This document shows positions 2,931 to 64,000 of a stretch of DNA of 64,000 nt, in pieces. The DNA is from Pomphorhynchus laevis (taxonomy: Eukaryota; Acanthocephala; Palaeacanthocephala; Echinorhynchida; Pomphorhynchidae), in assembly GCA_012934845.2 (NCBI GenBank), contig WNNJ02001234.1:1-64000 (forward strand). The letters are read 5' to 3'. The stretch's first letter is position 1, and each line of letters starts with the position of its first letter. A model generated the notes under the pieces. That model did no database searches and was not told where the DNA came from. It worked only from the letters and a program-made list of their open reading frames with translations. The position numbers and the translations under genes are program-made.

Positions 2931-3310
2931 ATCTTATATACAAGATAAATTCAAATTAAATTTGTAATTACTCTTGAGATTTACATATTACAATTATTAA
3001 ATTTCTATGTAAAACAAAATACGTACAGTTAATTGATCTGATTTATCTCGCTAATTTCACTAATAGTAATGGTACTATTTATGTAAGTAGATATTTTTGT
3101 GCATGTGCTGAGATTGCGACAATCTAGACAAAAACATCCGTTGTTTTTACATGTTAATCTCAAAGAGAAAGCGAATCCAGAATAGCTTTTAATTACAAAT
3201 ATTATACTATCTATCAAAAATTCATCTACAAAAATTAAATTTAACTTTGGTTGGATATAATGGTACTCAAATATTAATGGTGCGAGTATCAATGTTGTGA
3301 GTCACAGATT

Positions 3311-15830: not shown

Positions 15831-18290
15831 ATGCAGAGTACTCGTGAGCCTTTTTCACTGAATATTCTTCAGTGGAATTCGGGAGGTGCTTCTGCCCTTA
15901 GACTTCTATTCGGTAAAGATGCAGATGTTATAGTCCTTCAGGAGACGCGGTATATTCGTCTCCCCCGGGACATCACTCGACTCATCCCTAAGCACATGTG
16001 TTCCCACTATACTCCGTACATAACGCCGCCTCACTCCTCTTCATCTCAAGGTCTTCTAACCTAATTGAAATGCTCTCTAAGATCGTCCATCCTGCTAAAC
16101 TTCTCTTGTCCAGCCCTGTCGTGCTTAGTTATATCGCTCTGTAAGAACGGTAAACGCTTCAGTCTAGTCAATATCTGCATCCGTCCAGGTGAGATTCACA
16201 AGAACCGTGACCTACTAGATAGGATTTTATACAGTGGCTAGGACATGGTACTTGGTGATTTCAACGACAGAACTGGTCGTTGGCTTAATGCAGGCACTCC
16301 ATAGAGCCAGGAACGACTATCTTATTCATAAACCACCGTATCTTATTTTTCATTGCACATCAACGAACTCTCTCTTCGACATACTTTTGCTTCATAAGAG
16401 GTGGTGGTTGAAACCTCTCTCCACGAAGCAGTCGCGCCAACATCTGACCACCTCTCATGACCTAATTCGTTGGCGGATTTAAGAGGATACGTTGCTTCGT
16501 AGGAGATTCTACTTTGACCCCATCAGAGTGGCTTTCTTTCAGGCAGCTATCCAACGCTTCTCCCGAATTGGGAATGAGAGTCTAATCGAATTTAATTGCT
16601 CCCTCTCTTCGCAAGCTACCGCGTTGCCCTCGACTACCTGTAAAGGTCGTATTTATAGTCCCACTCCGACAAAACTCTTCCTTAGCTTATATGCTGTGTC
16701 TCCCCAATCTCTCTGTTTCTGCCAGACAGGCTCTCTCGAATGAATATTGGAGCACTAGGTATAGGTTCCAACTGGGTAAGGATAGGGCAAGCATTGCTTC
16801 GCTTAATCCAGCTATCTTCCTTTTGGAAGATATTCAAGAAGGAGAAATTTGTCTGTTGGAAAGATAGAGCATTGGGTTGGATTAGTAGTAAAGGTCTTGA
16901 TATAGTTTTAGAGGAGTTGCTATCCCTACATAATTATGGATCCACTCAATCTCTTCAGCCAATCCCGCCTTGGGGGACTTCAGAGTAGGAACCTATCTAT
17001 CACAGATATCCTTAACTTCTGGAGGCTACTCCTGGTCACCTCCAAATCCGTCGCTCCACTTTCTTCTCGGGTCTGTCAGCTTTTGACAGCCGAACAAAGA
17101 AGAAAAGTGGCCGTCACAATTCTATTATATCCCCTTCCGATGTGGCCGGCATCAACATTAGTCGTAGAATTTTTATACCTAAAAAATCTGGTCTCTTGTC
17201 CTAAAGACCTGCGGCCCATTTCGATACACAACTCCCTCATCTCCATTTACGAAAAAGCGCTTGCGCGTAAAATCCACGACAATCTATGTAGGCGTAATTT
17301 AATCCCACCAGGTTTTAATGGGTTTGTTAAAAGTCGCTCGGTCCATTCAGCAATTGGTGAGGTGCAGCATTTCTGTTGGGATAACATCCATCATTTCGTT
17401 GTGGCTGTTTTCCTTGACTTTTCTGCTGCATTTGACCGTATCTCCATACCCTTCGTTATCTCCTCTCTTAGGTCTCTCGGGTTGCCTGCGAGAATTGTAA
17501 ACAGGGTGGAGATTTTGTTGTACACCAAGCGATTCTTCAATGAAAACGACCTTTATGCGCATCAGTTCTACCCTTATACGGTGTGTCTCAAGGCTCCCCT
17601 CTTTCTCCAATCTTATTTCTTGCTGCCTCCATTGTACTCTATAGAAAATTTAGACGCGATCTACATCTAGTGGTATACGCTGATGATACCACATCCCTGT
17701 TTTCTGGACGTAGGTGCAAAGATGTAGTCTCGGACATCAGCCGTGTTTTTAAGATTAAAAGATCAGCTCCCCGCTTCCAATCTTATTCTAAACTCCAGCA
17801 AATCGCAGGTGGTTGTTTTTCATGGTACCCCTGCTGCCAAAAAGAAACTTAAGATATTAGCACTCTCTGCACTCCTCCATTTAGAAACCTCATCCAATCC
17901 CTATCTTTTCGAATCGAGTAAAATACCTGGGGTTCACCGTTACAGTGAACTGGTCGGCAAAAGCTGACCTGGATAGACTCAAACGTATTCTGAATAGAGC
18001 TAGGTGGGCCTTGAAACAGACTTAACATCTGTCATTATATGGGAAAAACCAAGTGCGCCTTTGGGTTACTTGGGCTATCTCGGGATTAGTCTTCTTTTCT
18101 AGAGGACGTCCCCCGGAGCAAAGGCTAAGGTTTCTCAAGCTCCTTGTCTCTCGTTTACCCAGCATAGTTCGCCTCGATTGGATTCTTCGAAGGGTTAAAG
18201 ACGCCGGGTGGTTCAGTCGGAACGCGGCGTGTTGGATTGGTTGGAAGGCTCAGATCCCATTTGACCTAAGGGCGTGAATTTTGGCGAAGA
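15831..18290 (+). pseudogene. LINE family B ORF2 (endonuclease and reverse transcriptase), broken
   Basis: The reading starts with an apurinic-type endonuclease N-terminus (ILQWNSGGASALRLLF, then ADVIVLQETRY) and moves through several frames to the RT. RT landmarks are LRPISIHNSLISIYEKALA (finger region), GFVKSRSVHSAI, palm motif A FLDFSAAFDRI (about 17420), the GVSQGSPLSP box (about 17580) and motif C VVYADDTTSL (about 17670). Downstream are VVFHGTPAAKKK and a VKYLG-like region. At least six frame changes or stops make it inactive. The motif set and the CCHC ORF1 place it near the jockey/R1 group; I cannot decide the clade by eye. Confidence 0.85.
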
Positions 18291-34255: not shown

Positions 34256-36423
34256 CAGAGGTGGGCATCTACGGCCTCGGAGGCCGCATGCGGCCTCCGA
34301 GCCTAGTTTATGCGGCCTCCGAGCATTTTTCAAAAAAAGGCAAGATAGAAATTATCATATTAACAATGTATTTTTTCTCTAATTTTTTATTTAGATACTT
34401 TTCCTTTGAATCTTATCATTTTTTGATATTTACAAGAAAATTTTTGGTTACCCCATCAGATGTCATCGCAAAAAAAGAGAAAGATAGATTCAGAGAATAG
34501 AGTTTTTAATATAGAATGGGAATATGATTACTTCTTTGTTCAGAGTAAAAACGGGATGGTGTGCTTAATTTGTAGAGCTAACTTAACAACGATCAAGAAA
34601 TTCAATGCAGAAAAACATTATGGCACGCATATCAATATGCCAATATGTAGACTTGATGGTGAGTGTAGAAAAGAGAAAATTCTAGAACTAAAAAAATCAA
34701 TCAAAAAACAACAAACATTATTCAAGAATATATTCAATTTGGGACTTTTACAAACAAAAGCGAGCTATTTGATTGCACATCTTATGGGTAAAAGAGGAAA
34801 GCCATATTCCGACTCAGAATTCATCAAAGAGGCCATAACTACAACAGTAAAATGCATAGATCCAGATAAAGTTGAAAAATATGAGAATCTTGCGCTCTCT
34901 CGGCGAACAATAGTCAGTCGCCAAACCGATATTGCGAAAAATTTACAACAAAAACTATCTTTTCTCTTAGCAGATCCAAATGCATTCTATTCATTGGCTA
35001 TTGATGAGTCAACTGATTCTACTGACTCTGCCCAATTACTCATTTTTATACGAATCGTTGACAAAAATTTCAATCTACGAGAAGAACTATTAGGTATGCA
35101 AACTCTAAAAGGGCAAGCTCGTGGAATTGACATCTTAGAAAAAGTGCAAGATCAAATTCAAAAATCAAAAGTCAATCCAGAATTTCTAGTGAGTATTTGT
35201 ACTGACGGTGCTCCTTCAATGGTAGGAAAAAATTCGGGATTTATTGCAAAGATGAAAGATATTATTAAACCACTGGAAATTCGTTCCTTTCATTGCATAT
35301 TACACCAACAAAATCTTTGCATAAAATCCGTTTCATTGGGATCAGTTTTCAAGAAAGTGAACGAAATTGTAATTTTCATTCGTTCAAACGCAACAAGACA
35401 CCGCCAATTCAGATCAATGATGGAAAATGACGAGTTTCACGGCAGTTATGATCTCTTATACCACTCAAGCGTTAGATGGCTTTCTGAGGCAAACGTTTTG
35501 AAGCGAGTATTTGATATAAGAGAGAAAATAATTCAATTCTTTTCAAATCTGAACAAGAGTTGCGATCTTTCAAATATTTATTTCATAATCGACATGTCAT
35601 TTCTAGTTGATATCATGATGAAGCAAAGAGAGCTCAATCTTTCTTTACAAGGTCAGAAAAATAACATTTTTGCTTCTTGGAAAAAGGTGAAGGCATTTCG
35701 TGCAACCATCATATTATTGAGAAACCAAATCAAGGACAAGCATTTTTCAAAAATTCATTTTACATATTTGCACGAAGTTACACGTCTGAACTATCCGACA
35801 GCTGAAATGCTTGAGAATTATGAAAGATATTTGACTGATCTGCACACCCAATACCAATCTCGATTCAATGATTTTGACGCATTTGAGTCAGAACTGACGC
35901 TTGTATTTGAGCCCCATCTTGTCGAAATTCATAAAGTAGAAGAGGAATTTCAAATCGAAATAATCGAGTTGCTGAATGATAATATTCTTATCAATCGCTT
36001 TGTTCAGAATCATGATATCTACGATATATGGCGCTTCGCATCAAAATATTCAGCCCTACAGAAAAATGCTCAGAAGATATTGACTATATTTTCAACAACT
36101 TACTGTTGCGAATCTGCATTTTCCCACATGACGAAGATAAAATCATCACAAAGAACATCTTTATCAGACAATCATCTTGAAGAAAGCCTCATTCTGCGAA
36201 CAAGTAACCTAGAACCAGACATTGATCAATTAACACAGGCTAAATATAAAAAAAAGTTTGGATCAAATGAATGAATTGATTCTTAGCACCAAGTGGATAT
36301 GATTCTGTTTTTATTACATATTTTTTCAAAAAGATCGAATTAATTATTTCATACTCATGTGGCCTTTTCAATTTTTGGAAACTTCGATTTGGCATTTTGA
36401 TGCTCAGCCCTCGCCCACCCCTG
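34256..36423 (+). mobile_element. Complete hAT DNA transposon with 8-bp target-site duplication
   Basis: The ends are CAGAGGTGGGC (left) and GCCCACCCCTG (right), an 11-bp inverted repeat with one mismatch. TTATATGG is present directly outside both ends (34248-34255 and 36424-36431), the 8-bp duplication that defines hAT insertions. The left subterminal region holds three GC-rich repeats of GCGGCCTCCGAG type in both orientations, which are plausible transposase binding sites. The element is 2168 bp, contains one intact transposase ORF, and is inserted in a Penelope-like fragment. The near-perfect state suggests a recent insertion. Confidence 0.95.
34460..36274 (+). CDS. hAT transposase (BED-like finger, RNase H-like core), intact, 604 aa
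   Basis: This protein cuts and pastes the hAT element around it. The N-terminus is basic (SSQKKRKIDSE), followed by a BED-type zinc-finger-like segment with C35, C38, H53 and H57. The RNase H-like catalytic core shows LAIDESTDSTDSAQL (Asp near residue 180) and ICTDGAPSMVG (Asp near 248), then a helical insertion with HCILHQQNLC. The C-terminal hAT dimerisation region has TYCCESAFSHMTKIKSSQRT (about residues 546-565). Overall organisation and length fit the animal family that includes the domesticated EPM2AIP1, GTF2IRD2 and ZBED-type proteins. There is no frame break. The start is the first ATG of the long frame and gives the expected basic leader. Its codons are much less AT-biased than the flanks. 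Confidence 0.93.
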   Translation: MSSQKKRKIDSENRVFNIEWEYDYFFVQSKNGMVCLICRANLTTIKKFNAEKHYGTHINMPICRLDGECRKEKILELKKSIKKQQTLFKNIFNLGLLQTKASYLIAHLMGKRGKPYSDSEFIKEAITTTVKCIDPDKVEKYENLALSRRTIVSRQTDIAKNLQQKLSFLLADPNAFYSLAIDESTDSTDSAQLLIFIRIVDKNFNLREELLGMQTLKGQARGIDILEKVQDQIQKSKVNPEFLVSICTDGAPSMVGKNSGFIAKMKDIIKPLEIRSFHCILHQQNLCIKSVSLGSVFKKVNEIVIFIRSNATRHRQFRSMMENDEFHGSYDLLYHSSVRWLSEANVLKRVFDIREKIIQFFSNLNKSCDLSNIYFIIDMSFLVDIMMKQRELNLSLQGQKNNIFASWKKVKAFRATIILLRNQIKDKHFSKIHFTYLHEVTRLNYPTAEMLENYERYLTDLHTQYQSRFNDFDAFESELTLVFEPHLVEIHKVEEEFQIEIIELLNDNILINRFVQNHDIYDIWRFASKYSALQKNAQKILTIFSTTYCCESAFSHMTKIKSSQRTSLSDNHLEESLILRTSNLEPDIDQLTQAKYKKKFGSNE

Positions 36424-56300: not shown

Positions 56301-59300
56301 TCGAATCGCTCTTATGCCCAAACAATAGATTAATCTTTAAAAAGCGGAAGAGGATCATTGATGTCTTGATTACTCGCAGATATTATTACCGCATGCACGG
56401 AAAACGATATTAAAAGATGTGTCTAGAAATATATTTTTATGAGCCTACATCTTACAAACTTAATGATTGATAAAAAATAGTATTGAATATATATTATATA
56501 CTATATAATATAAATAATTATAATAATATCAAAGTTAAATGTGAATGAATTACAAGTGATGACTTGTTGTAGTTCATAAATTTCATTAATTCATTAATTT
56601 TAATTCCTTCAAAATTAATTATCGAGAGATAAAACATAAACCGAATAAAACGCGATATCGCATTTCACATTTAAAAAATTTAAATGTTTTAAATTAAACA
56701 TTTTAATGTACTTAATAAAAACTTTAATAAAACTTTTAACAAACTTTTAATAAAAGTTTAAATCTAGATACTTTGCTCTAAAGTATTGATTGCTTCAGAG
56801 CGAAGCAATTATTACTGCGATTTTTTTGTTCCTAAAGTTGCTGCTTAACTACTAGTGATAAAATAATTAAATTAATTAAAGCACACTTCAAGAAATGTGG
56901 TAGGTAATCAAAATAATAATAAATAAAATAACATATTGATAAATTAAAAAAAAAAACTGAAAATAACAAACAATTATAAAAGGAAAGATAAAATTAATAA
57001 AGATATGTATAAAGAACTTACTAAATTAAAGCATAATCAAAAGGGTATAAATATAGATTAAATAATAACAACGACAAAAATAAAATTTACAATTCGTTAT
57101 ATAATAACTTAAATGATTACTTTAGTAAGCTGATTAATAGTGAAAGCTCGAATATATCTAAGATAAAAATTTGGAAAGATTATATATTTGATAAAATTAA
57201 AAATAAAATGAAAATAACAAACAATTATAAAAGGAAAGATAAAATTAATAAAGATATGTATAAAGAACTTACTAAATTAAAGGATAACTATATAATAACA
57301 ACTATTGATAAAGCTAGTAATAACTTTGTCTTCATATGCAAAAAGCTTTATTATGATATACTAATGAAAGAGGTTAATTCTAATGATTTAAATGTAAATC
57401 CAACATATGAACGTAGTGAGTTGAGTTTTGAAACAATTATTACAAGTCACTGTTCTATAATGGATAAAAAGGGTATAAAGGTTGAATCAGATAATAAAAC
57501 TATACCTATATTATATTGGAATCCAAAATTACATAAAAATCCAATAAAACCTAGGTTCATATGTAGTGCGTTTAAATGTACATTAAAACCACTTTCTGTC
57601 TATATGAATAAAATACTTAAAGTAATTAAAGCACACTTTAAAAAATATTGCAAGGTAATCGAAATTAATACTGGTATAAAACACTATTTCAGTATTAATT
57701 CTACAAAAGAATTTTTAGAACAGACAAAAGGAATAAATTTTCAGAATATAAATACATACGATTTTAGTACGCTTTATACAAATCTAGATTTAGTAGATAT
57801 TAAAGAAGCGTTAGTAAAATTAATTAATCTTATATTCGGAAAAAGATATACATATATATGTTATAATAATTATAACGCCTATCTAACAAAAATTAAACCA
57901 TCAAGTAAATATAAATATATGGATAAAATTGAATTAATAGAATCCTTAAATATTTAAGAACTTACTAAATTAAAGGATAACTATATAATAATAACTATTG
58001 ATAAAGCTAGTAATAACTTTGTCTTCATATGCAAAAAGCTTTATTATGATATACTAATGAAAGAGGTTAATTCTAATGATTTAAATGTAAATCCAACATT
58101 GTGATATAATGATGAAAGAGGTAAATTCTAATGATTTAAATGTAAATCCAACATATGAATGTAGTGATTTAAATTTAGAAACAATTATTACAAGTCACTG
58201 TTACATATTGAATATAAAGTGTATAAAGGTTGAATCACATAATAAATGTATACCTACATTATATTAGCCACAAATGGGCCACCTGATATCCTTCAGAACC
58301 AGATTTTCGCCTCTTGTGATAAGATTGAGGCACAATGTGTATTTAACTCTAGTAATTTTTATTCATTAAGCGAACAAATTTATCAAGGTAGCCTTATTCT
58401 TAATAAAACCAATATTAATGATAAAGAAGGTGTATATCTAGATATGAACATTAAATTAACATCAATTAAAACTATCATTAATTTATATTGTATAAATTAC
58501 ATGGTTAAATTTACAATAAACATATTTCTGCATGAGCATTCATGCATACCATATAATATTAAATCAATTAAAACTATTATGAGGTATTATAATATTAAGA
58601 TATTATATATATTTTATATAATATATAAAATATAATACATTAAATAATGAAATTTTAAGAATTGCTATAACATGCAATGATAATGGTTTTCTATAATATA
58701 AATATTAGCGCCACAAGGAAAATTTGTAATTATAATAAAGAGTTGAAATCAGTATGTAACGATAATATTAGTAACATTATAGAAACAAAATGCAATTGCG
58801 AAAGTCTTAGTTTTGATAAAATAAATGAACATATATACACTTTTAATCTAGAATTAATTAAAATTGTGAATCAATGAAAATGACATTAAAAGGATAAATT
58901 AAATAATTTTAGATTAAATAATAATGTTTATTATTTAATAATGCTATAATTATTATATAATTTTATAATTATTTGTTTGTAATAATCATTATCAATAATA
59001 ATGCTATAGATTAAATAATAATGATGAAAATAAAATTTACAATTCGTTATATAATGACTTGTCGCCATCTTCTTTCTATTAAATATTTTTATTAAGATTT
59101 ATCGCTTCATTTCAACAATAAATCAAAGATTAATTAATGATTATGACAGCGCAAGTTGTATAATATGCAGTTATTGTAATATAAAATAATGTAATCGAAC
59201 AATATATGTATTTTATTATAATATGTAAAATATAATACATTAAATAATGAAATTTTAAGAATTGCTATAACATGCAATGATAATGGTTTTCTATAATATA

Positions 59301-61901
59301 AATATTAGCGCCACAAGGAAAATTTGTAATTATAATAATATATGTATTTTATTATAAATATATATATGTATTTTATTATAAATTATATTATTTGTATAAC
59401 ATTACATTTACAAGGTTACCCGCTAATGGGTCCCATAAAAACATTATGTTTGAAACCATTTTGAATTGGGTTGTTTCTGGTAGATCATGCTAACCGAATG
59501 CACATCGACGAAGCCCTTGCCAATGCAAATCCGATTCTACATCGAATGGAATTAATGCATGCATTATAATGGAGGGACGATCTGGAAGCTTTGAGCTGCG
59601 TGATCCGTTTTAACGCTTTCGACTTAGAAGGTACCAGTGATCCTATTCGCAGCAAAAATTATCGGCACAAAGTGAGCTCTCTTAATACGCGCAACCCTTT
59701 CATCATATTTTGCTCGTTTTCGTTGTTTATGATACATAAATTTGGATGAGACGGGACTAGCTGAGTAGGATGGAGCAAGATGATTAAACACATTGATGTC
59801 CAGTGAGTAAGATGTCCAGAATAAGTTTGCAGTGCCTTTATATTCTTCTTGAGCCTAATATATAATCTAATATAATTTCCACATATTTACACTAATAAAC
59901 ACTTTTCGCTCCATTTCAACAATAAATCAAAGATTAAGCAATTATTTCATAAGCATATGAGATTAATAGGACATGATATTAAAAACTATAAGTTATTTTA
60001 GAATATATAATTAAAGAAAACATATCAATATTAAATCAAAAACTATTAGAAAAAGAAGATTTTTGGATTAAAACGCTTAATTCCATGTACCCATTAGGAT
60101 TGAATGACGTGGTACAAGGAATTGGCGGAAGTAGTATAATACATAATGAACAACTATATTATAATAATCCGGTTAAACGCAAACCAAGAAGTCATGGTGA
60201 TAAAAGGAATAAGAAAAATAGACTTAAAATATTAAAAAAGATAAGTATATATATGAACAATTAGAAATATTAAAACAACTTTTAAGAGATAATAAGCTGA
60301 AAGATCTTTATGTAAATATAAGAAGTTTTTCTAAATATATCATTTGTTCAATAAATCAAAGATTAATTAACAATTATGATAGGTTGGGTTGTATAATAGA
60401 TAGTTATTTTAATATAAAAAAGATTTTATAAAATACTATAATCGTACAATAAATGTAAATAATAACAATAGAAAATATACATTAACCATAAACTTCATTA
60501 ATAAATGTATAGATAACATAAATATAGCTGGACTTTTAAATAATTCTAAAAGTAAAGAAATAATAGGGTCAGATTTAAGTAAATATATTTCTAAAATAAG
60601 GTATAAACTCTTACCACTATTAGGACGAAAAATTTGTAATTATAATAAAGAATTAAAATCAATATGTAAAGATAGTATTGGAAAACTTTGGCTGCTTTTT
60701 AGACGCCACTAAAGACTGCGAATTTTAAGGGTATTAAATTTTATTCTATAAACTCTATTATTTTTAATAATATTGTGTTGATTCATATATTAATAACAAT
60801 AACAATAAAAATATACATTACCATAAACTTCATTAATAAATGTATAGATAACATAAATATTGGTAGACTTTTAAATAAAATTCTAAGAGTAAAGAAATAA
60901 TAGGATAAAATTTAAGTAAATATATTCATCAAATAAGCTATAAACTCCTACCACCATTAGGACGGAAAATTTATTATTATAACAAAGAATCGAAATCAAT
61001 ATGTATTAATGTTTTTAATATAATGTTGATATTAAAAACATTATAGAAACAGAATGGAATTGCAAAAGTATTTTCTTGTTGATAAAATAAATGAACATAT
61101 ATGCACTCATAATCTAGAATTAACTGAAAACAATGAATTTAGAAAGCTGCTATCAAAATATAGATTAAATTATTGCAACGACAAAAATAAAATTTACAAT
61201 TTGTTATATAATGACTTAAATTTTCCAGTCAATGCGATTTTTTGGCATGCCCGGTTTGGCATGCCAAACCGGGCAAACAACAACATTTTATTTCATCAGT
61301 AAAATTGATTTCGCTGTTTAAAATCAACATAATGATTTCTGTTATTTTCGTCAATGACAGATTGATTCTCGATCTTACGTTAGATAAGATACGTAACATG
61401 CCTTCTACTGGGGAAGATGTGATGTGCATAAAATGCACATCACATCTAACATGTGATGTGCATTTTATGGCTAGTTTAAATTGTATTAAATAGTTGATTA
61501 TTTTATAGAATAATTTACTATTTAAAAATAAACAATTGGTATTTAAATTAAAAATTGATTAAACTCATAATAATTTTGTTTTAAATGATTTTTATAATAA
61601 AATTGCCTGATTTCAAGTTATGGTTTTTTTAAATTTGTATTCTAGAGAATGTAAATTGCTCCTTACTTTCCAGTCAATGCGATTTTCTAACAAAAATGGG
61701 CATTCATAGCCGAATTCAGGTACAACTGTAAAAGTAATTATGATTATATTATTATTTTAGAGTTTACTGCGATCAACCGATGATCAAACATTACGTGCTG
61801 ATTTTATACATTCTTGTAAAAGACTACTAAGTGAAATGGGCCATAGTTTTAAAGTAACCTGTCTTAGTACATTTAAACCTATATTTCCGTTCTTGTACTA
61901 A
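50315..61901 (+). CDS. NDUFAF7: NDUFAF7 protein arginine methyltransferase, complex I assembly (9 exons)
   Basis: This mitochondrial matrix enzyme symmetrically dimethylates an arginine of NDUFS2 early in complex I assembly. Exons are 50315-50410, 50459-50542, 50598-50705, 50750-50971, 51019-51141, 52768-52923, 54874-54976, 61646-61719 and 61761-61901. All introns are GT-AG, and the frame is kept, giving 368 aa. Landmarks are SEYMQ near the start, GYYARNAKIGSTGD-like GDFFTSPELNQCFGE (about 33-60), the SAM-binding motif LLIELGPGNGTL (79-90), IFFIANEFFDTQPIRSF (HEFFD motif), GGAALICDYGE, GEADLTADVDFRLIRKIAQR, and FLTKMGIHSRIQSLLR. Human NDUFAF7 has about 440 residues; the missing part is the N-terminal targeting region plus short gaps. 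Intron 7 (6669 bp) is filled with Penelope-like DNA. A 64-bp gap separates it from FARSA. Confidence 0.95.
51430..51560 (+). mobile_element. Penelope-like terminal box in NDUFAF7 intron 5
   Basis: CGGAAATACATCATTTACAT, then TTGATCCCGCTGCTATGTTG, GAAGCCAAAACCTAAT and GAGTTCCTTCATATCATCTC parallel the terminal box at 12745-12845 (GGAAATACATCATTAGCATG and so on). No coding part accompanies it. Confidence 0.7.
51917..52198. repeat. Large foldback palindrome in NDUFAF7 intron 5
   Basis: Arms of about 95-100 bp (CGAAATATGATTATTGGTCT ... to AAAAATTG) flank about 80 bp. Read rightwards, the right arm has TTGAAGAAGAAGCCGCAAGG, then CGAAACGTGAAATTGAAG; GCC-GCAA-GGC forms a GNRA-capped hairpin directly followed by GAAAC. 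The layout is the same as the foldbacks at 389-545 and 32636-32850, with unrelated arm sequence. Confidence 0.85.
52924..54873. other. NDUFAF7 intron 6, AT-rich
   Basis: A block of about 40 bp (ATAATTAATATTTAAATATT plus AATTAATTATTAATTAAT) appears at about 52958 and again at about 53484. No transposon coding sequence, RNA gene or exon is recognised. Confidence 0.6.
54977..56929. other. NDUFAF7 intron 7, first part
   Basis: AT-rich. The only clear structure is the repeat pair listed at 56033-56530, with a GC-richer island between its copies (about 56130-56400). That island holds short readable stretches (for example RKRIIDVLITRRYYYRMHGK near 56345-56400) that I cannot assign to a family. Confidence 0.5.
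56033..56530. repeat. Direct repeat pair of about 97 bp, 396 bp apart
   Basis: TTTTTATGAGCCTACATCTTA-AAACTTAATGA and the following ATA-rich tail with ACTATATAATATAAATAAT occur at 56033-56128 and 56429-56530. The enclosed GC-richer DNA may be an insertion flanked by LTR-like repeats or the product of a tandem duplication. Confidence 0.65.
56930..58640 (+). mobile_element. Penelope-like element with RT domain, internally rearranged
   Basis: In the sense direction there is an N-terminal domain piece (KNKIYNSLYNNLNDYFSKLI, about 57085-57140), the RT fingers and palm (57208-57957), then a duplicated copy of the fingers segment (57958-58100 repeats 57266-57405), a third partial copy, and the thumb (58330-58600: [20 protein letters not shown], then [11 protein letters not shown]). 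A block of about 72 bp at 56958-57030 is repeated at 57208-57283. These partial tandem copies are typical of Penelope insertions. Confidence 0.85.
57208..57957 (+). CDS. Penelope-like reverse transcriptase, N-terminal part of RT (249 codons)
   Basis: This open frame encodes the fingers and the first palm half of a telomerase-related Penelope RT. Motifs are TTIDKASNNFVFICKKLYYD (residues about 33-52), PILYWNPKLHKNPIKPRFIC (about 99-118, the KLHK-P-RPI signature) and TYDFSTLYTNLDL (about 185-197, motif A with its catalytic Asp). It ends at a stop before motifs B' and C, so it is truncated and presumably inactive. The missing motifs are found as separate minus-strand scraps in the SEC11 intron. 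The extreme A/T codon bias matches the flanks. Confidence 0.85.
   Translation: MKITNNYKRKDKINKDMYKELTKLKDNYIITTIDKASNNFVFICKKLYYDILMKEVNSNDLNVNPTYERSELSFETIITSHCSIMDKKGIKVESDNKTIPILYWNPKLHKNPIKPRFICSAFKCTLKPLSVYMNKILKVIKAHFKKYCKVIEINTGIKHYFSINSTKEFLEQTKGINFQNINTYDFSTLYTNLDLVDIKEALVKLINLIFGKRYTYICYNNYNAYLTKIKPSSKYKYMDKIELIESLNI
58640..61221 (+). mobile_element. Mosaic of Penelope-like fragments in NDUFAF7 intron 7
   Basis: A block of about 118 bp at 58620-58738 is repeated at 59222-59337. Coding scraps include N-terminal-domain sequence (ICNYNKELKSVCNDN, then FDKINEHIYTFNLEL; 58700-58880 and again 61054-61220 with ENNEFRKLLSKYRLNY). There is also the C-terminal part of the GIY-YIG endonuclease (EDFWIKTLNSMYPLGLNDVV, about 60053-60112) and linker pieces (KYISKIRYKLLPLLG, about 60590). 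The order endonuclease then N-terminus shows at least two elements in tandem. None is intact. Confidence 0.8.
59484..59671 (+). pseudogene. Orphan exon-like segment with one in-frame stop, family unknown
   Basis: An island of ordinary coding composition lies in very AT-rich PLE debris. It follows an acceptor (TTTCTGGTAG) and ends at a donor (GTGAGC). Read in phase, it gives 62 codons: HANRMHIDEALANANPILHR, MELMHAL, TAA (59567-59569), then WRDDLEALSCVIRFNAFDLE and GTSDPIRSKNYRHK. The same frame continues on both sides of the stop, so a nonsense mutation in a former exon is the simplest reading. The phases (1 in, 0 out) do not fit between NDUFAF7 exons 7 and 8. I do not recognise the family. 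It could be a gene fragment captured by a retroelement or part of an unseen nested gene. Confidence 0.4.
61222..61241 (+). repeat. 20-bp copy of NDUFAF7 exon 8 sequence
   Basis: TTTCCAGTCAATGCGATTTT is identical to 61667-61686 inside exon 8. It sits exactly at the end of the last PLE fragment. It may be a target-site duplication or a piece copied during PLE insertion. Confidence 0.8.
61249..61274. repeat. 26-bp perfect palindrome (GC-rich)
   Basis: Each half is GCCCGGTTTGGCA, with no spacer. It lies directly after the 20-bp exon-8 copy. Another hairpin follows (ATGTGATGTGCAT / ATGCACATCACAT, about 61417-61447), with a third half copy to 61467. Confidence 0.9.
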
Positions 61902-61924
61902 ATTGTTTCTTCTGTATTCATCTT

Positions 61925-61930
61925 AATAAA
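61925..61930 (+). terminator. Poly(A) signal for NDUFAF7
   Basis: AATAAA lies 24 nt after the NDUFAF7 stop and 35 nt before the FARSA ATG. This leaves room only for an operon-like hand-over between 3'-end formation and the next splice acceptor. Confidence 0.65.
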
Positions 61931-61963
61931 AAGGATTCCAGGAATTTTCTGAATTTAAATTAT

Positions 61964-61965
61964 AG
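61964..61965 (+). promoter_or_regulatory. Splice acceptor touching the FARSA start codon
   Basis: TTTAAATTATAG is followed directly by ATGACTAAG. With only 64 bp to the upstream stop there is hardly room for a promoter plus a 5' exon, so SL trans-splicing of a polycistronic transcript is favoured. Confidence 0.65.
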
Positions 61966-62151
61966 ATGACTAAGCACCGTCCTTCTTTGTTAGTGAATGG
62001 ATCTCATGGAGAATCTTCTGTACGCACGCAGCTCTTACAAATGCTTAAGAAAGATAAATGCGTAAACAGCCTCGTATTTGCCAATCTATTACAAGTAGAC
62101 CATCAACAAATTGTTGGTATTTTGAAAAGTTTAGAATTTCAAGGCAATGAG
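61966..62151 (+). CDS. FARSA: Cytosolic phenylalanyl-tRNA synthetase alpha subunit, exon 1 (partial)
   Basis: FARSA with FARSB charges tRNA-Phe in the cytosol. This 62-codon exon encodes the N-terminal winged-helix (DNA-binding-fold) domain: LLQMLKKDKCVNSLVFANLL, QVDHQQIVGILKSLEFQGNE. It parallels the human start (LLRRLEASDGGLDSAELAAEL, EHQAVVGAVKSLQALGE). The exon ends at a donor GTAGAA after Glu62; the open frame that runs on past this point loses all similarity. The rest of the gene (about 440 residues) was not found before the window end, so intron 1 must be at least 1.8 kb and contain the ribozyme satellite. The identification rests on one short domain but is strong in pattern and length. 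Confidence 0.85.
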
Positions 62152-62910
62152 GTAGAATTAACAATTATCCGATTTTTTAACTTTTTAGATTTTTGTTTTT
62201 TAAGTCACATTTCTTTCGGTTGATTGATAAGTTATTTGAAAGTCATTTTGTTTGTAGTGGAAATTACATTTGAAGTCATATTGTTCGGATCAATAAAATA
62301 TAAATTAAATATATCAATTAAATATTTAATTGATATCAATTTAATATCAATTAAATATAGATCGTTCTTTCGAACGTGTTTAGTTAATAAAAAATATAAT
62401 TTATTTAAATTAATAACTTAGATTATTTGAATCTAGAAATTTATATTAGTTCAATCTAAATTACTTTAATCTAAACAATCTTGATTATTTTAATCTCAAA
62501 GTTCTAGATTATTTTGACTAGTTAATCCAGATTATTTTAACATAAATAATTCAGATTATTTTAATCGAAATAATTTGAAACTTTTAATAAATATATATTT
62601 TATTTAAATCTAGTAAAGATTATCGGAATGTTTAACATAAAGTATTTTATATAATAAACTTTAAATAATTTTTATTATTAAAATTAGAATAAGATAAATT
62701 TAAATTATATTGACAATATATTTTGTTTTGATTATTACTAAATATCATCAAATGCAAACAAAGTAAAACTCATTATTCATTCTAATATTTACTTTTATGC
62801 TTCCTTGATTTTAATTTTTTTTATAAATTTGATATTTATGCTCTGAATTTTAAATTTGATATTTCTGCTCTGAATCGTTAGTAAATCAATTGTTTACTAA
62901 CAATTAATGA
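62152..62910. other. Start of presumed FARSA intron 1
   Basis: Very AT-rich, with a run of diverged GATTATTTTAATC(T)-type repeats between 62410 and 62580. No second FARSA exon could be recognised. Confidence 0.5.
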
Positions 62911-62953
62911 ATTGTTTAGTAATCATATAAGCCCGACGCGAAAGAATGACGAA

Positions 62954-63032
62954 TGCCGTTTCGTCATTACTATGACTCATCAGTGCCAGTTCCCTCCCAC
63001 TGCTGGATGCAGAGGAGGACTAGCAGACGGCA
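62954..63032 (-). ncRNA. Type III hammerhead ribozyme, satellite monomer 1
   Basis: Read on the minus strand: stem III 5' arm TGCCG, cleavage triplet GTC (cut expected 3' of the base opposite 63026), stem I, CTGATGA, stem II GTCAT-AGTA-ATGAC, GAAA, stem III 3' arm CGGCA. Stem I is a closed hairpin with three helices: TGCTAGT/ACTGGCA, CCTCC/GGAGG and CTGC/GCAG around loop ATCCA. All conserved core bases are present. Stem III is the open one, hence type III. Confidence 0.92.
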
Positions 63033-63260
63033 ATCAACGAATGAATCAAGTGCATGATGTACTAGAAAATCTCTAGTAACATCATCTAGAGTGCTGAATT
63101 AGCACCACAATAGCGTCACCAAATTGTATCATTAGCACAAGCACTGGCAAATGCCAGCGCAAGGTATCTTAATATCGGCTTACTTCTAATCTCAAATGAT
63201 AATACCATTCCGCGTGAATTTTTTAGTAATCATATAAGCTCGACGCGAAAGAATGACGAA

Positions 63261-63339
63261 TGCCGTTTCGTCATTACTATGACTCATCAGTGCCAGTTCC
63301 CTCCCACTGCTGGATGCAGAGGAGGACTAGCAGACGGCA
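63261..63339 (-). ncRNA. Type III hammerhead ribozyme, satellite monomer 2
   Basis: Identical in core and stems to monomer 1, shifted by 307 bp. Confidence 0.92.
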
Positions 63340-63567
63340 ATCAACGAATGAATCAAGTGCATGATGTACTAGAAAATCTCTAGTAACATCATCTAGAGTG
63401 CTGAATTAGCACTACAATAGCGTCACCAAATTGTATCATTAGCACAAGCACTGGCAAATGCCAGCGCAAGGTATCTTAATATCGGCTTACTTCTAATCTC
63501 AAATGATAATACCATTCCGCGTGAATTTTTTAGTAATCATATAAGCTCGACGCGAAAGAATGACGAA

Positions 63568-63646
63568 TGCCGTTTCGTCATTACTATGACTCATCAGTGC
63601 CAGTTCCCTCCCACTGCTGGATGCAGAGGAGGACTAGCAGACGGCA
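63568..63646 (-). ncRNA. Type III hammerhead ribozyme, satellite monomer 3
   Basis: Identical in core and stems to monomer 1, shifted by 614 bp. Confidence 0.92.
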
Positions 63647-63874
63647 ATCAACGAATGAATCAAGTGCATGATGTACTAGAAAATCTCTAGTAACATCATC
63701 TAGAGTGCTGAATTAGCACTACAATAGCGTCACCAAATTGTATCATTAGCACAAGCACTGGCAAATGCCAGCGCAAGGTATCTTAATATCGGCTTACTTC
63801 TAATCTCAAATGATAATACCATTCCGCGTGAATTTTTTAGTAATCATATAAGCTCGACGCGAAAGAATGACGAA

Positions 63875-63953
63875 TGCCGTTTCGTCATTACTATGACTCA
63901 TCAGTGCCAGTTCCCTCCCACTGCTGGATGCAGAGGAGGACTAGCAGACGGCA
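63875..63953 (-). ncRNA. Type III hammerhead ribozyme, satellite monomer 4
   Basis: Identical in core and stems to monomer 1, shifted by 921 bp. The monomer itself is cut by the window end, but the ribozyme is complete. Confidence 0.92.
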
Positions 63954-64000
63954 ATCAACGAATGAATCAAGTGCATGATGTACTAGAAAATCTCTAGTAA

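What the first reader, a model, noticed from the sequence alone, without database searches (positions are those of the whole stretch)
62911..64000. Satellite DNA whose every 307-bp monomer carries a complete type III hammerhead ribozyme
Seen: exact 307-bp period; on the minus strand CTGATGA, GTCAT/ATGAC stem II, GAAA, TGCCG/CGGCA stem III, and a GTC cleavage triplet in each unit, with a stem I built of three helices. Known: hammerheads occur in animal satellites (schistosomes, newts, cave crickets) and retrozymes, and as far as I know these are mostly type I. A type III satellite with such a long, jointed stem I would be unusual. Inferred: transcripts self-cleave to 307-nt RNAs that may circularise and be re-copied, which would explain the array's homogeneity.
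Basis: partly seen in the sequence, partly recalled or inferred. Interest (0 to 1): 0.92.

Follow-up and report, generated by a model that had tools for sequence, protein, structure and literature searches.

The report
Self-cleaving RNA retroelement in animal genome
The repeat is one copy of a small scattered parasitic DNA element whose RNA appears to carry its own cutting enzyme, and the edges of its copies in the genome mark both where the RNA seems to cut itself and where a Penelope-type copying machine seems to start turning it back into DNA.

Summary
The window ends in a 307-bp tandem array; each unit carries on the minus strand a complete hammerhead fold with a long closed stem I and open stem III (type III topology). 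A descriptor of that fold hits the 4 units and nothing in 19.2 Mb of Markov sequence. It is not a local satellite: a 41-mer of the ribozyme occurs 926 times genome-wide, in the fetched stretches mostly as short dispersed arrays.

Array edges suggest the mechanism. 5' ends pile up at the predicted cut: 6 of 33 arrays, then 11 of 30 new ones. 3' ends fall in two zones about 33 nt apart, near 110 and 144 nt past the cut: 27 of 33, then 25 of 30. Inverted 5' arms start in the same zones (12 of 16). A Penelope-like element assayed in vitro behaves this way (PMC11167929).

Best reading: a metazoan non-LTR retrozyme with a type III hammerhead, moved by Penelope-like machinery. Published animal retrozymes are described as type I; Penelope mobilisation was only proposed. 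Cleavage was not assayed, no RNA data were seen, the helper is inferred, and a circular intermediate is unproven. The host is an unnamed animal, possibly an acanthocephalan.

The parts
62908..64000 (-). Tandem array of 307-bp retrozyme units (RNA sense = minus strand); continues to about 64534 on the contig, 5.3 copies in all; RNA-sense 3' end at 62908 (phase 118)
62952..63039 (-). Type III hammerhead, unit 1; predicted cut 63026/63025
63259..63346 (-). Type III hammerhead, unit 2; predicted cut 63333/63332
63566..63653 (-). Type III hammerhead, unit 3; predicted cut 63640/63639
63873..63960 (-). Type III hammerhead, unit 4; predicted cut 63947/63946
63252..63275 (-). Competing hairpin AATGACGAA/TTCGTCATT, which would bury GAAA (unit 2; the same in the other units)
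   Evidence: inverted repeat; folding
63215..63232 (-). Inferred reverse-transcription start zone 1, phases 101-118 (shown in unit 2)
   Evidence: 3' ends of arrays elsewhere; coordinates
63184..63199 (-). Inferred reverse-transcription start zone 2, phases 134-149 (shown in unit 2)
   Evidence: 3' ends of arrays elsewhere; coordinates
61761..62150 (+). Exons that I read by eye as phenylalanyl-tRNA synthetase alpha (approximate ends); further exons lie on the contig beyond the array, so the array sits in an intron, ribozyme antisense to the gene
   Evidence: translations; name recalled, no database match made
56936..61221 (+). Broken, rearranged pieces of an abundant Penelope-like element (GIY-YIG-like part before the RT); neighbour, not part of the array
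   Evidence: relatives

Best explanation
A non-coding, non-LTR retrozyme family. RNA of the minus strand folds into a type III hammerhead in each unit and cuts itself after GTC (in vivo cutting inferred from genomic 5' ends; not assayed). A Penelope-like protein acting in trans cuts AT-rich target DNA and starts reverse transcription inside the RNA, in two zones about 110 and 144 nt downstream of the cut, on one or both target ends. cDNA runs upstream through one to several units, round a circle or along an uncut multimer, and often runs off at the ribozyme's own cut. If both target ends are extended, the cDNAs meet head to head and leave the inverted 5' arm. Shown by sequence: the fold (as a motif beyond chance), dispersal, both end patterns with replication, the inverted arms. 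Inferred: in vivo cleavage, the helper, the circle.
For: Complete motif, 0 in 19.2 Mb of Markov sequence. 926 ribozyme sites genome-wide, reversed control 0. 3' ends in two zones 27 of 33 (zones drawn on these data), then 25 of 30 with zones fixed beforehand. 5' ends at the predicted cut 6 of 33 and 11 of 30; over all 307 phases the fullest 9-nt windows straddle the cut, 10 of 49 ends. Inverted-arm outer ends in the zones 12 of 16; 16 further short pieces, mostly arms, 12 of 16 and 5 of 16 at the cut. Flank matches longer than for mismatched flanks (mean 8.0 v 6.1 nt), flanks 80% AT. An Anolis Penelope-like element in vitro: cuts AT-rich DNA, extends both strands, starts at two internal sites bounding a 30-40 bp tail (PMC11167929, main text read). 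A C-terminal GIY-YIG family in this genome ends near L060 932-936 (4 loci) or 967-973 (21 of 38 ends at the two modes), about 35 nt apart.
Against: No RNA data and no assay. Rfam below threshold. Compensatory base changes are few: most changes in paired positions are one-sided, and pairs 3-40 and 7-36 of stem I are standard in only 71% and 62% of 210 copies. Conservation of the dispersed core is not exceptional: 10% of random column sets do as well. No significant sequence similarity to the candidate helper (72 of 500 shuffles as good), and the most abundant Penelope-like family shows another end pattern (13 pieces near 370-387, 3 at 219-228). The tailless ends of the candidate helper rest on 4 loci. 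Most 5' ends are not at the cut (27 of 33; 19 of 30). Microhomology at some joins can shift an end by a few nt (e.g. L032).
Confidence: 0.75

Rival explanations
1. Ordinary satellite DNA spread by unequal exchange and DNA-level amplification; the hammerhead is a relic of its origin.
For: Long clusters exist: about 50 kb on C1831 and 8.2 kb on C516; cores there decay like other bases (9 of 74 intact on C1831). The window array is nearly uniform.
Against: Fixed end phases, cut-site 5' ends, inverted arms and flank duplications are not expected from exchange; the copies are dispersed.
Confidence: 0.1
2. Same element, but moved by LINE-type machinery rather than a Penelope-like one.
For: LINE-like RT frames are common nearby (e.g. 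RVT_1 in window 16936-17667); target-primed reverse transcription also gives 5' truncation and inversions (recalled).
Against: Two internal start zones used on both target ends, ribozyme-linked, are what is described for Penelope-like elements (PMC11167929); no poly-A or 3' simple repeat was seen at the array ends printed.
Confidence: 0.12
3. Same element, but templates are linear, incompletely cut multimers; no circle is involved.
For: Mixed unit types within arrays L021, L022, L027, L030; multi-unit arrays that begin at the cut; a competing hairpin could leave internal ribozymes uncut.
Against: Arrays nearly uniform inside but far from every other array held (L009 0.2% v 4.6%; L015 0.3% v 8.7%; L031 0% v 16.8%) fit copying of a one-unit circle; described animal retrozymes accumulate as circles (PMC7229834, passages).
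Confidence: 0.4
4. The hammerhead does not cut in vivo; ends at phase 1 reflect a reverse-transcription stop at the stable stem I.
For: Stem I is a strong hairpin, and only a minority of 5' ends lie at the cut.
Against: A polymerase moving 3' to 5' on the RNA meets stem I at phase 42 first; ends sit at phases 307-5, after it has been crossed.
Confidence: 0.12

Closest known systems
Metazoan non-LTR retrozymes (Cervera and de la Pena 2020, PMC7229834; passages read)
   Different: Those are described with type I hammerheads; here the topology is type III with a 17-bp jointed stem I. Their Penelope mobilisation is a proposal; here the insertion ends carry a Penelope-like signature
Plant LTR retrozymes (passages in PMC7229834, PMC7761336, PMC6155905)
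   Same: Type III hammerhead in a non-coding retroelement
   Different: Plant units are about 600-1000 nt with LTRs, PBS and PPT and 4-bp target duplications; here a 307-bp tandem unit, and I saw no sign of LTR structure (PBS and PPT not searched)
Penelope-like elements with minimal hammerheads (PMC11167929, main text read; Cervera and de la Pena 2014 not held)
   Same: Tandem copies, inverted 5' pieces (recalled for the class), two internal reverse-transcription starts about 35 nt apart downstream of a hammerhead, AT-rich targets
   Different: This repeat codes for nothing and has a complete type III hammerhead instead of a minimal type I one
Type III hammerheads of deltavirus-like RNAs and some insect genomes (PMC7936874, passages read)
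   Same: Type III with unusually long stem I in animals
   Different: Those have a 5-bp first stem, a 6-10 nt internal loop and a GCCR/YGGC loop pairing; here a 7-bp first stem and a 2-nt bulge, and I see no GCCR/YGGC pairing; the termite genomic motifs are isolated, not tandem

Membership tests
Hammerhead ribozyme, type III | Conserved core CTGATGA, GAAA, UH before the cut, three helices, stem III open | tested here: met
   4 of 4 units in the window; 0 chance hits in 19.2 Mb
Hammerhead ribozyme, type III | Rfam RF00008 gathering score | tested here: not met
   16.2 bits against 48.5; nothing at gathering threshold. The model's stem I is short, so I do not take this as decisive
Hammerhead ribozyme, type III | Compensatory changes in stems | tested here: inconclusive
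   Copies are too alike; changes mostly one-sided
Hammerhead ribozyme, type III | Self-cleavage | not testable with these tools
   Indirect only: 5' ends at the cut, 6 of 33 and 11 of 30
Metazoan non-LTR retrozyme | Hammerhead-bearing tandem repeat of about 150-450 bp, GC under 50%, no long frame | tested here: met
   307 bp, GC 42%, longest stop-free run 89 codons in joined units
Metazoan non-LTR retrozyme | Type I hammerhead | tested here: not met
   Type III topology; hence 'works like', or a variant, not a plain member
Metazoan non-LTR retrozyme | Dispersed insertions with target duplications | tested here: met
   926 sites; duplications only statistical: 45% v 15% of flank pairs match 8 nt or more
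Metazoan non-LTR retrozyme | Circular RNA | not testable with these tools
   No RNA data
Mobilised by Penelope-like machinery | Two internal reverse-transcription start sites about 30-40 nt apart, on both target strands | tested here: met
   27 of 33 and 25 of 30 array ends; inverted-arm outer ends 12 of 16
Mobilised by Penelope-like machinery | Shared sequence signal with a Penelope-like element of the same genome | tested here: not met
   No significant similarity; the element in L065 merely lies beside a retrozyme fragment
Satellite DNA | Long local arrays as the main genomic form | tested here: not met
   35 dispersed arrays of 1.7-10.9 units; two long clusters exist

The most novel reading that the evidence does not exclude
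The ribozyme sets the length of the insertion. A Penelope-like enzyme copies a small circle of this RNA round and round until the hammerhead opens the circle, so that cDNA starts at one of two fixed sites and runs off at the cut, while a competing hairpin keeps the circle closed long enough to be copied several times. A type III, not a type I, hammerhead drives this in an animal.
Probability: 0.33. Interest if true: 0.92.

Novelty: new variant of a known kind. Interest (0 to 1): 0.8.

Why it matters
Perreault et al. (PMC3088659, passages read) note that repeat-associated hammerheads in eukaryotes are overwhelmingly type I and that spreading might require type I; this family would be a counter-example. 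It also supplies genome-wide footprints for two open points: whether such ribozymes cut in vivo, and whether Penelope-like enzymes move animal retrozymes (proposed in PMC7229834). The method, reading array ends by phase, needs no bench work and could be applied to other genomes with retrozymes.

Tried and rejected
Plain satellite: disfavoured by dispersal and end phases.

The abundant Penelope-like family that also lies in the window (GIY-YIG-like part before the RT) as helper: its pieces end mostly near unit position 370-387 (13) with 3 at 219-228, not as a 33-nt pair, and it shows no sequence match to the repeat. Pfam and PDB gave nothing for its 908-aa frame; relatives carry RVT_1 and GIY-YIG. 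I then looked at a C-terminal GIY-YIG family.

A shared reverse-transcription signal between that family and the repeat: the alignment was no better than 72 of 500 shuffles; dropped.

Tunicate host: rejected, because AGA stands at conserved serines and AAA at a conserved lysine in COX1-like fragments (conserved positions recalled). Pomphorhynchus laevis was then considered from size, GC and repeats (PMC7310846, PMC7943196, passages); kept as possible only.

Other hammerhead families in the genome: search not answered. Rfam on seven fetched loci, E up to 1: no hammerhead.

Full report
What is there. From 62908 the window consists of 307-bp units; the array continues to about 64534 of contig C245: 1627 bp, 5.3 copies, six differences at lag 307. 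I number phases from the first base after the predicted cut on the minus strand. Each unit reads TGCCGTC | a 42-nt stem I hairpin | CTGATGA | GTCAT-AGTA-ATGAC | GAAA | CGGCA. Stems I and II are closed and stem III is open: a type III arrangement. A descriptor for it finds the four units and none in 300 Markov windows (19.2 Mb) or in 300 sequences of the unit's own dinucleotide content. Rfam gives nothing at its threshold and RF00008 only 16.2 bits.

Not a local satellite. A 41-mer of the ribozyme occurs 926 times with up to 3 mismatches (478 and 448 on the two strands; reversed control 0). I fetched 40 stretches: 34 around the places listed, and six of one long cluster on C1831. In the 34 stretches I measured 35 arrays of 1.7 to 10.9 units.

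Ends of arrays. Each end was placed by comparing the array with its own interior. Two arrays with flanks shared by another were dropped (L012b, L024), leaving 33. RNA-sense 3' ends: 16 in phases 101-118, 11 in 134-149, 6 elsewhere (4, 27, 51, 68, 163, 266). I drew these zones on these data. Seventeen arrays carry a short inverted piece on the 5' side. Without L024, the outer end lies in the zones in 12 of 16 and the inner end at the cut in 4 of 16. Over all 307 positions the fullest 9-nt windows straddle the cut, 10 of 49 ends.

Replication. A search with three units of another subfamily gave coordinates of further arrays (141 matches from 39 scored of 1804 candidates, best first, so biased to long good matches). 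I left out nine rows of a short tandem and the contigs already used, except a new place on C1929. That left 30 arrays of 450 bp or more and 16 shorter pieces. With the zones fixed beforehand, 3' ends fall in them in 25 of 30 (misses at 70, 100, 119, 150, 211), and 5' ends at the cut in 11 of 30 (p about 1e-19 and 4e-10 against uniform phases). The shorter pieces, mostly inverted arms, give 12 of 16 and 5 of 16. C2995 and C942 may be one locus twice; without one, 24 and 10 of 29.

Targets. The longest match between the two flanks averages 8.0 nt against 6.1 for mismatched flanks, and reaches 8 nt in 45% against 15%; flanks are 80% AT. Eighteen of 33 have no match of 8 nt.

Helper. In vitro the Anolis Penelope-like element cuts AT-rich DNA, extends both strands and starts inside its RNA at two adjacent sites that bound the genomic 'tail' (PMC11167929, main text read). 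That is the pattern found here. The genome holds at least two candidate kinds. The abundant one (12,896 first-look candidates of which 129 were scored; open frames up to 908 aa) ends mostly near one place. The other, with a C-terminal GIY-YIG domain, stops at L060 932-936 in four loci. Of 38 tailed ends, 14 lie at 973 and 7 at 967, the rest between 966 and 1015: about 35 nt further on. It has a CTGATGA...GAAA motif upstream of its ends, reminiscent of the minimal hammerheads of such elements, but the model R1 does not match it and Rfam does not name it. No sequence similarity to the repeat is significant. So the helper is inferred from the pattern alone.

Template. Units of L009, L015 and L031 differ by 0-0.3% inside and by 4.6-16.8% from the nearest other array held, whereas L021, L022 and L026 are about as different inside as from other arrays, and L021, L022, L027 and L030 mix unit types. 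Circle copying fits the first; uncut multimers, multi-unit circles or template switching fit the others.

Folding. RNA reaching up to 8 nt past stem III has the hammerhead as its minimum-energy fold (-37.9 kcal/mol). From 10 nt past it a 9-bp hairpin that buries GAAA wins (-38.9, then -39.3). A cut-while-nascent, then-lock switch is a computed suggestion, with a margin of only about 1 kcal/mol.

Constraint. Among 66 dispersed units, phases 20-72 vary in 5.6% of cells against 12.5% at phases 91-280 (p=0.025). Intact cores: 92 of 136 dispersed ribozymes and 9 of 74 in the C1831 cluster, where core and other bases decay alike. In the dispersed set 10% of random column sets are as well kept as the core, and compensatory changes are few.

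Context and host. The array lies in an intron of a gene that I read by eye as PheRS alpha, ribozyme antisense to the gene. The genome has COX1-like fragments that read with AGA as serine, no TTAGG or TTAGGG triples (control 4 and 2), and 249 Mb; the fetched stretches have 32% GC. Pomphorhynchus laevis (260.3 Mb, 4,021 contigs, 32.9% GC, PMC7310846; rich in LINEs and Penelope-like elements, PMC7943196; passages read) fits roughly, but contig number and size differ (3,242; 249.4 Mb), and no call gives a name.

In print. Full-text searches for hammerhead with satellite DNA, with Penelope-like, retrozyme with type III, hammerhead with Acanthocephala (none), retrozymes with Penelope and circRNA and retrozyme with target-primed and Penelope (none) showed me no type III retrozyme in an animal, in the titles, abstract beginnings and passages seen. 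The library lacks most subscription journals.

Noticed in passing
L053 about 3230-3300, L047 4978-5045, window about 12,800: The abundant Penelope-like element has downstream of its frame a GC-rich stretch with two interleaved pairings (GGCCCC/GGGGCC and CTGCTATG/CATAGCAG), a pseudoknot layout reminiscent of HDV-like ribozymes; Rfam gave no match for L053.
   Followed up: partly
L055 (C1660:6600-10600): A contig stretch that reads as bacterial (a UvrC-like frame and other bacterial-looking frames, by eye), so the assembly seems to hold contaminant or symbiont sequence.
   Followed up: no
window 56936-61221: Rearranged pieces of the abundant Penelope-like element 1.7 kb from the array; one 305-codon stretch is 98-100% identical to the 128 other genome copies listed, some with open 908-aa frames.
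   Followed up: partly
C1636:602093-602316: Beside the cut-site end of a retrozyme array, a tandem of about 23-bp spacing made of a piece of the stem I region, in inverted orientation.
   Followed up: no
C1831:4439-54472 and C516:26500-34681: Two long clusters of the same repeat; the first is old and decayed, with Penelope-like and other element pieces between.
   Followed up: partly
window 34460-36274: A 604-aa open frame with hAT dimerisation domain, a DNA transposon that looks well preserved.
   Followed up: no
L049-L052 (C2414, C2953, C3234, C510): Broken COX1-like stretches with stops, probably nuclear copies of mitochondrial DNA; in L050 an RT-like frame lies beside one.
   Followed up: no
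L061:1907-2005: A long, nearly perfect hairpin that scores weakly with several microRNA families, all far below their cut-offs; perhaps a small inverted-repeat transposon.
   Followed up: no
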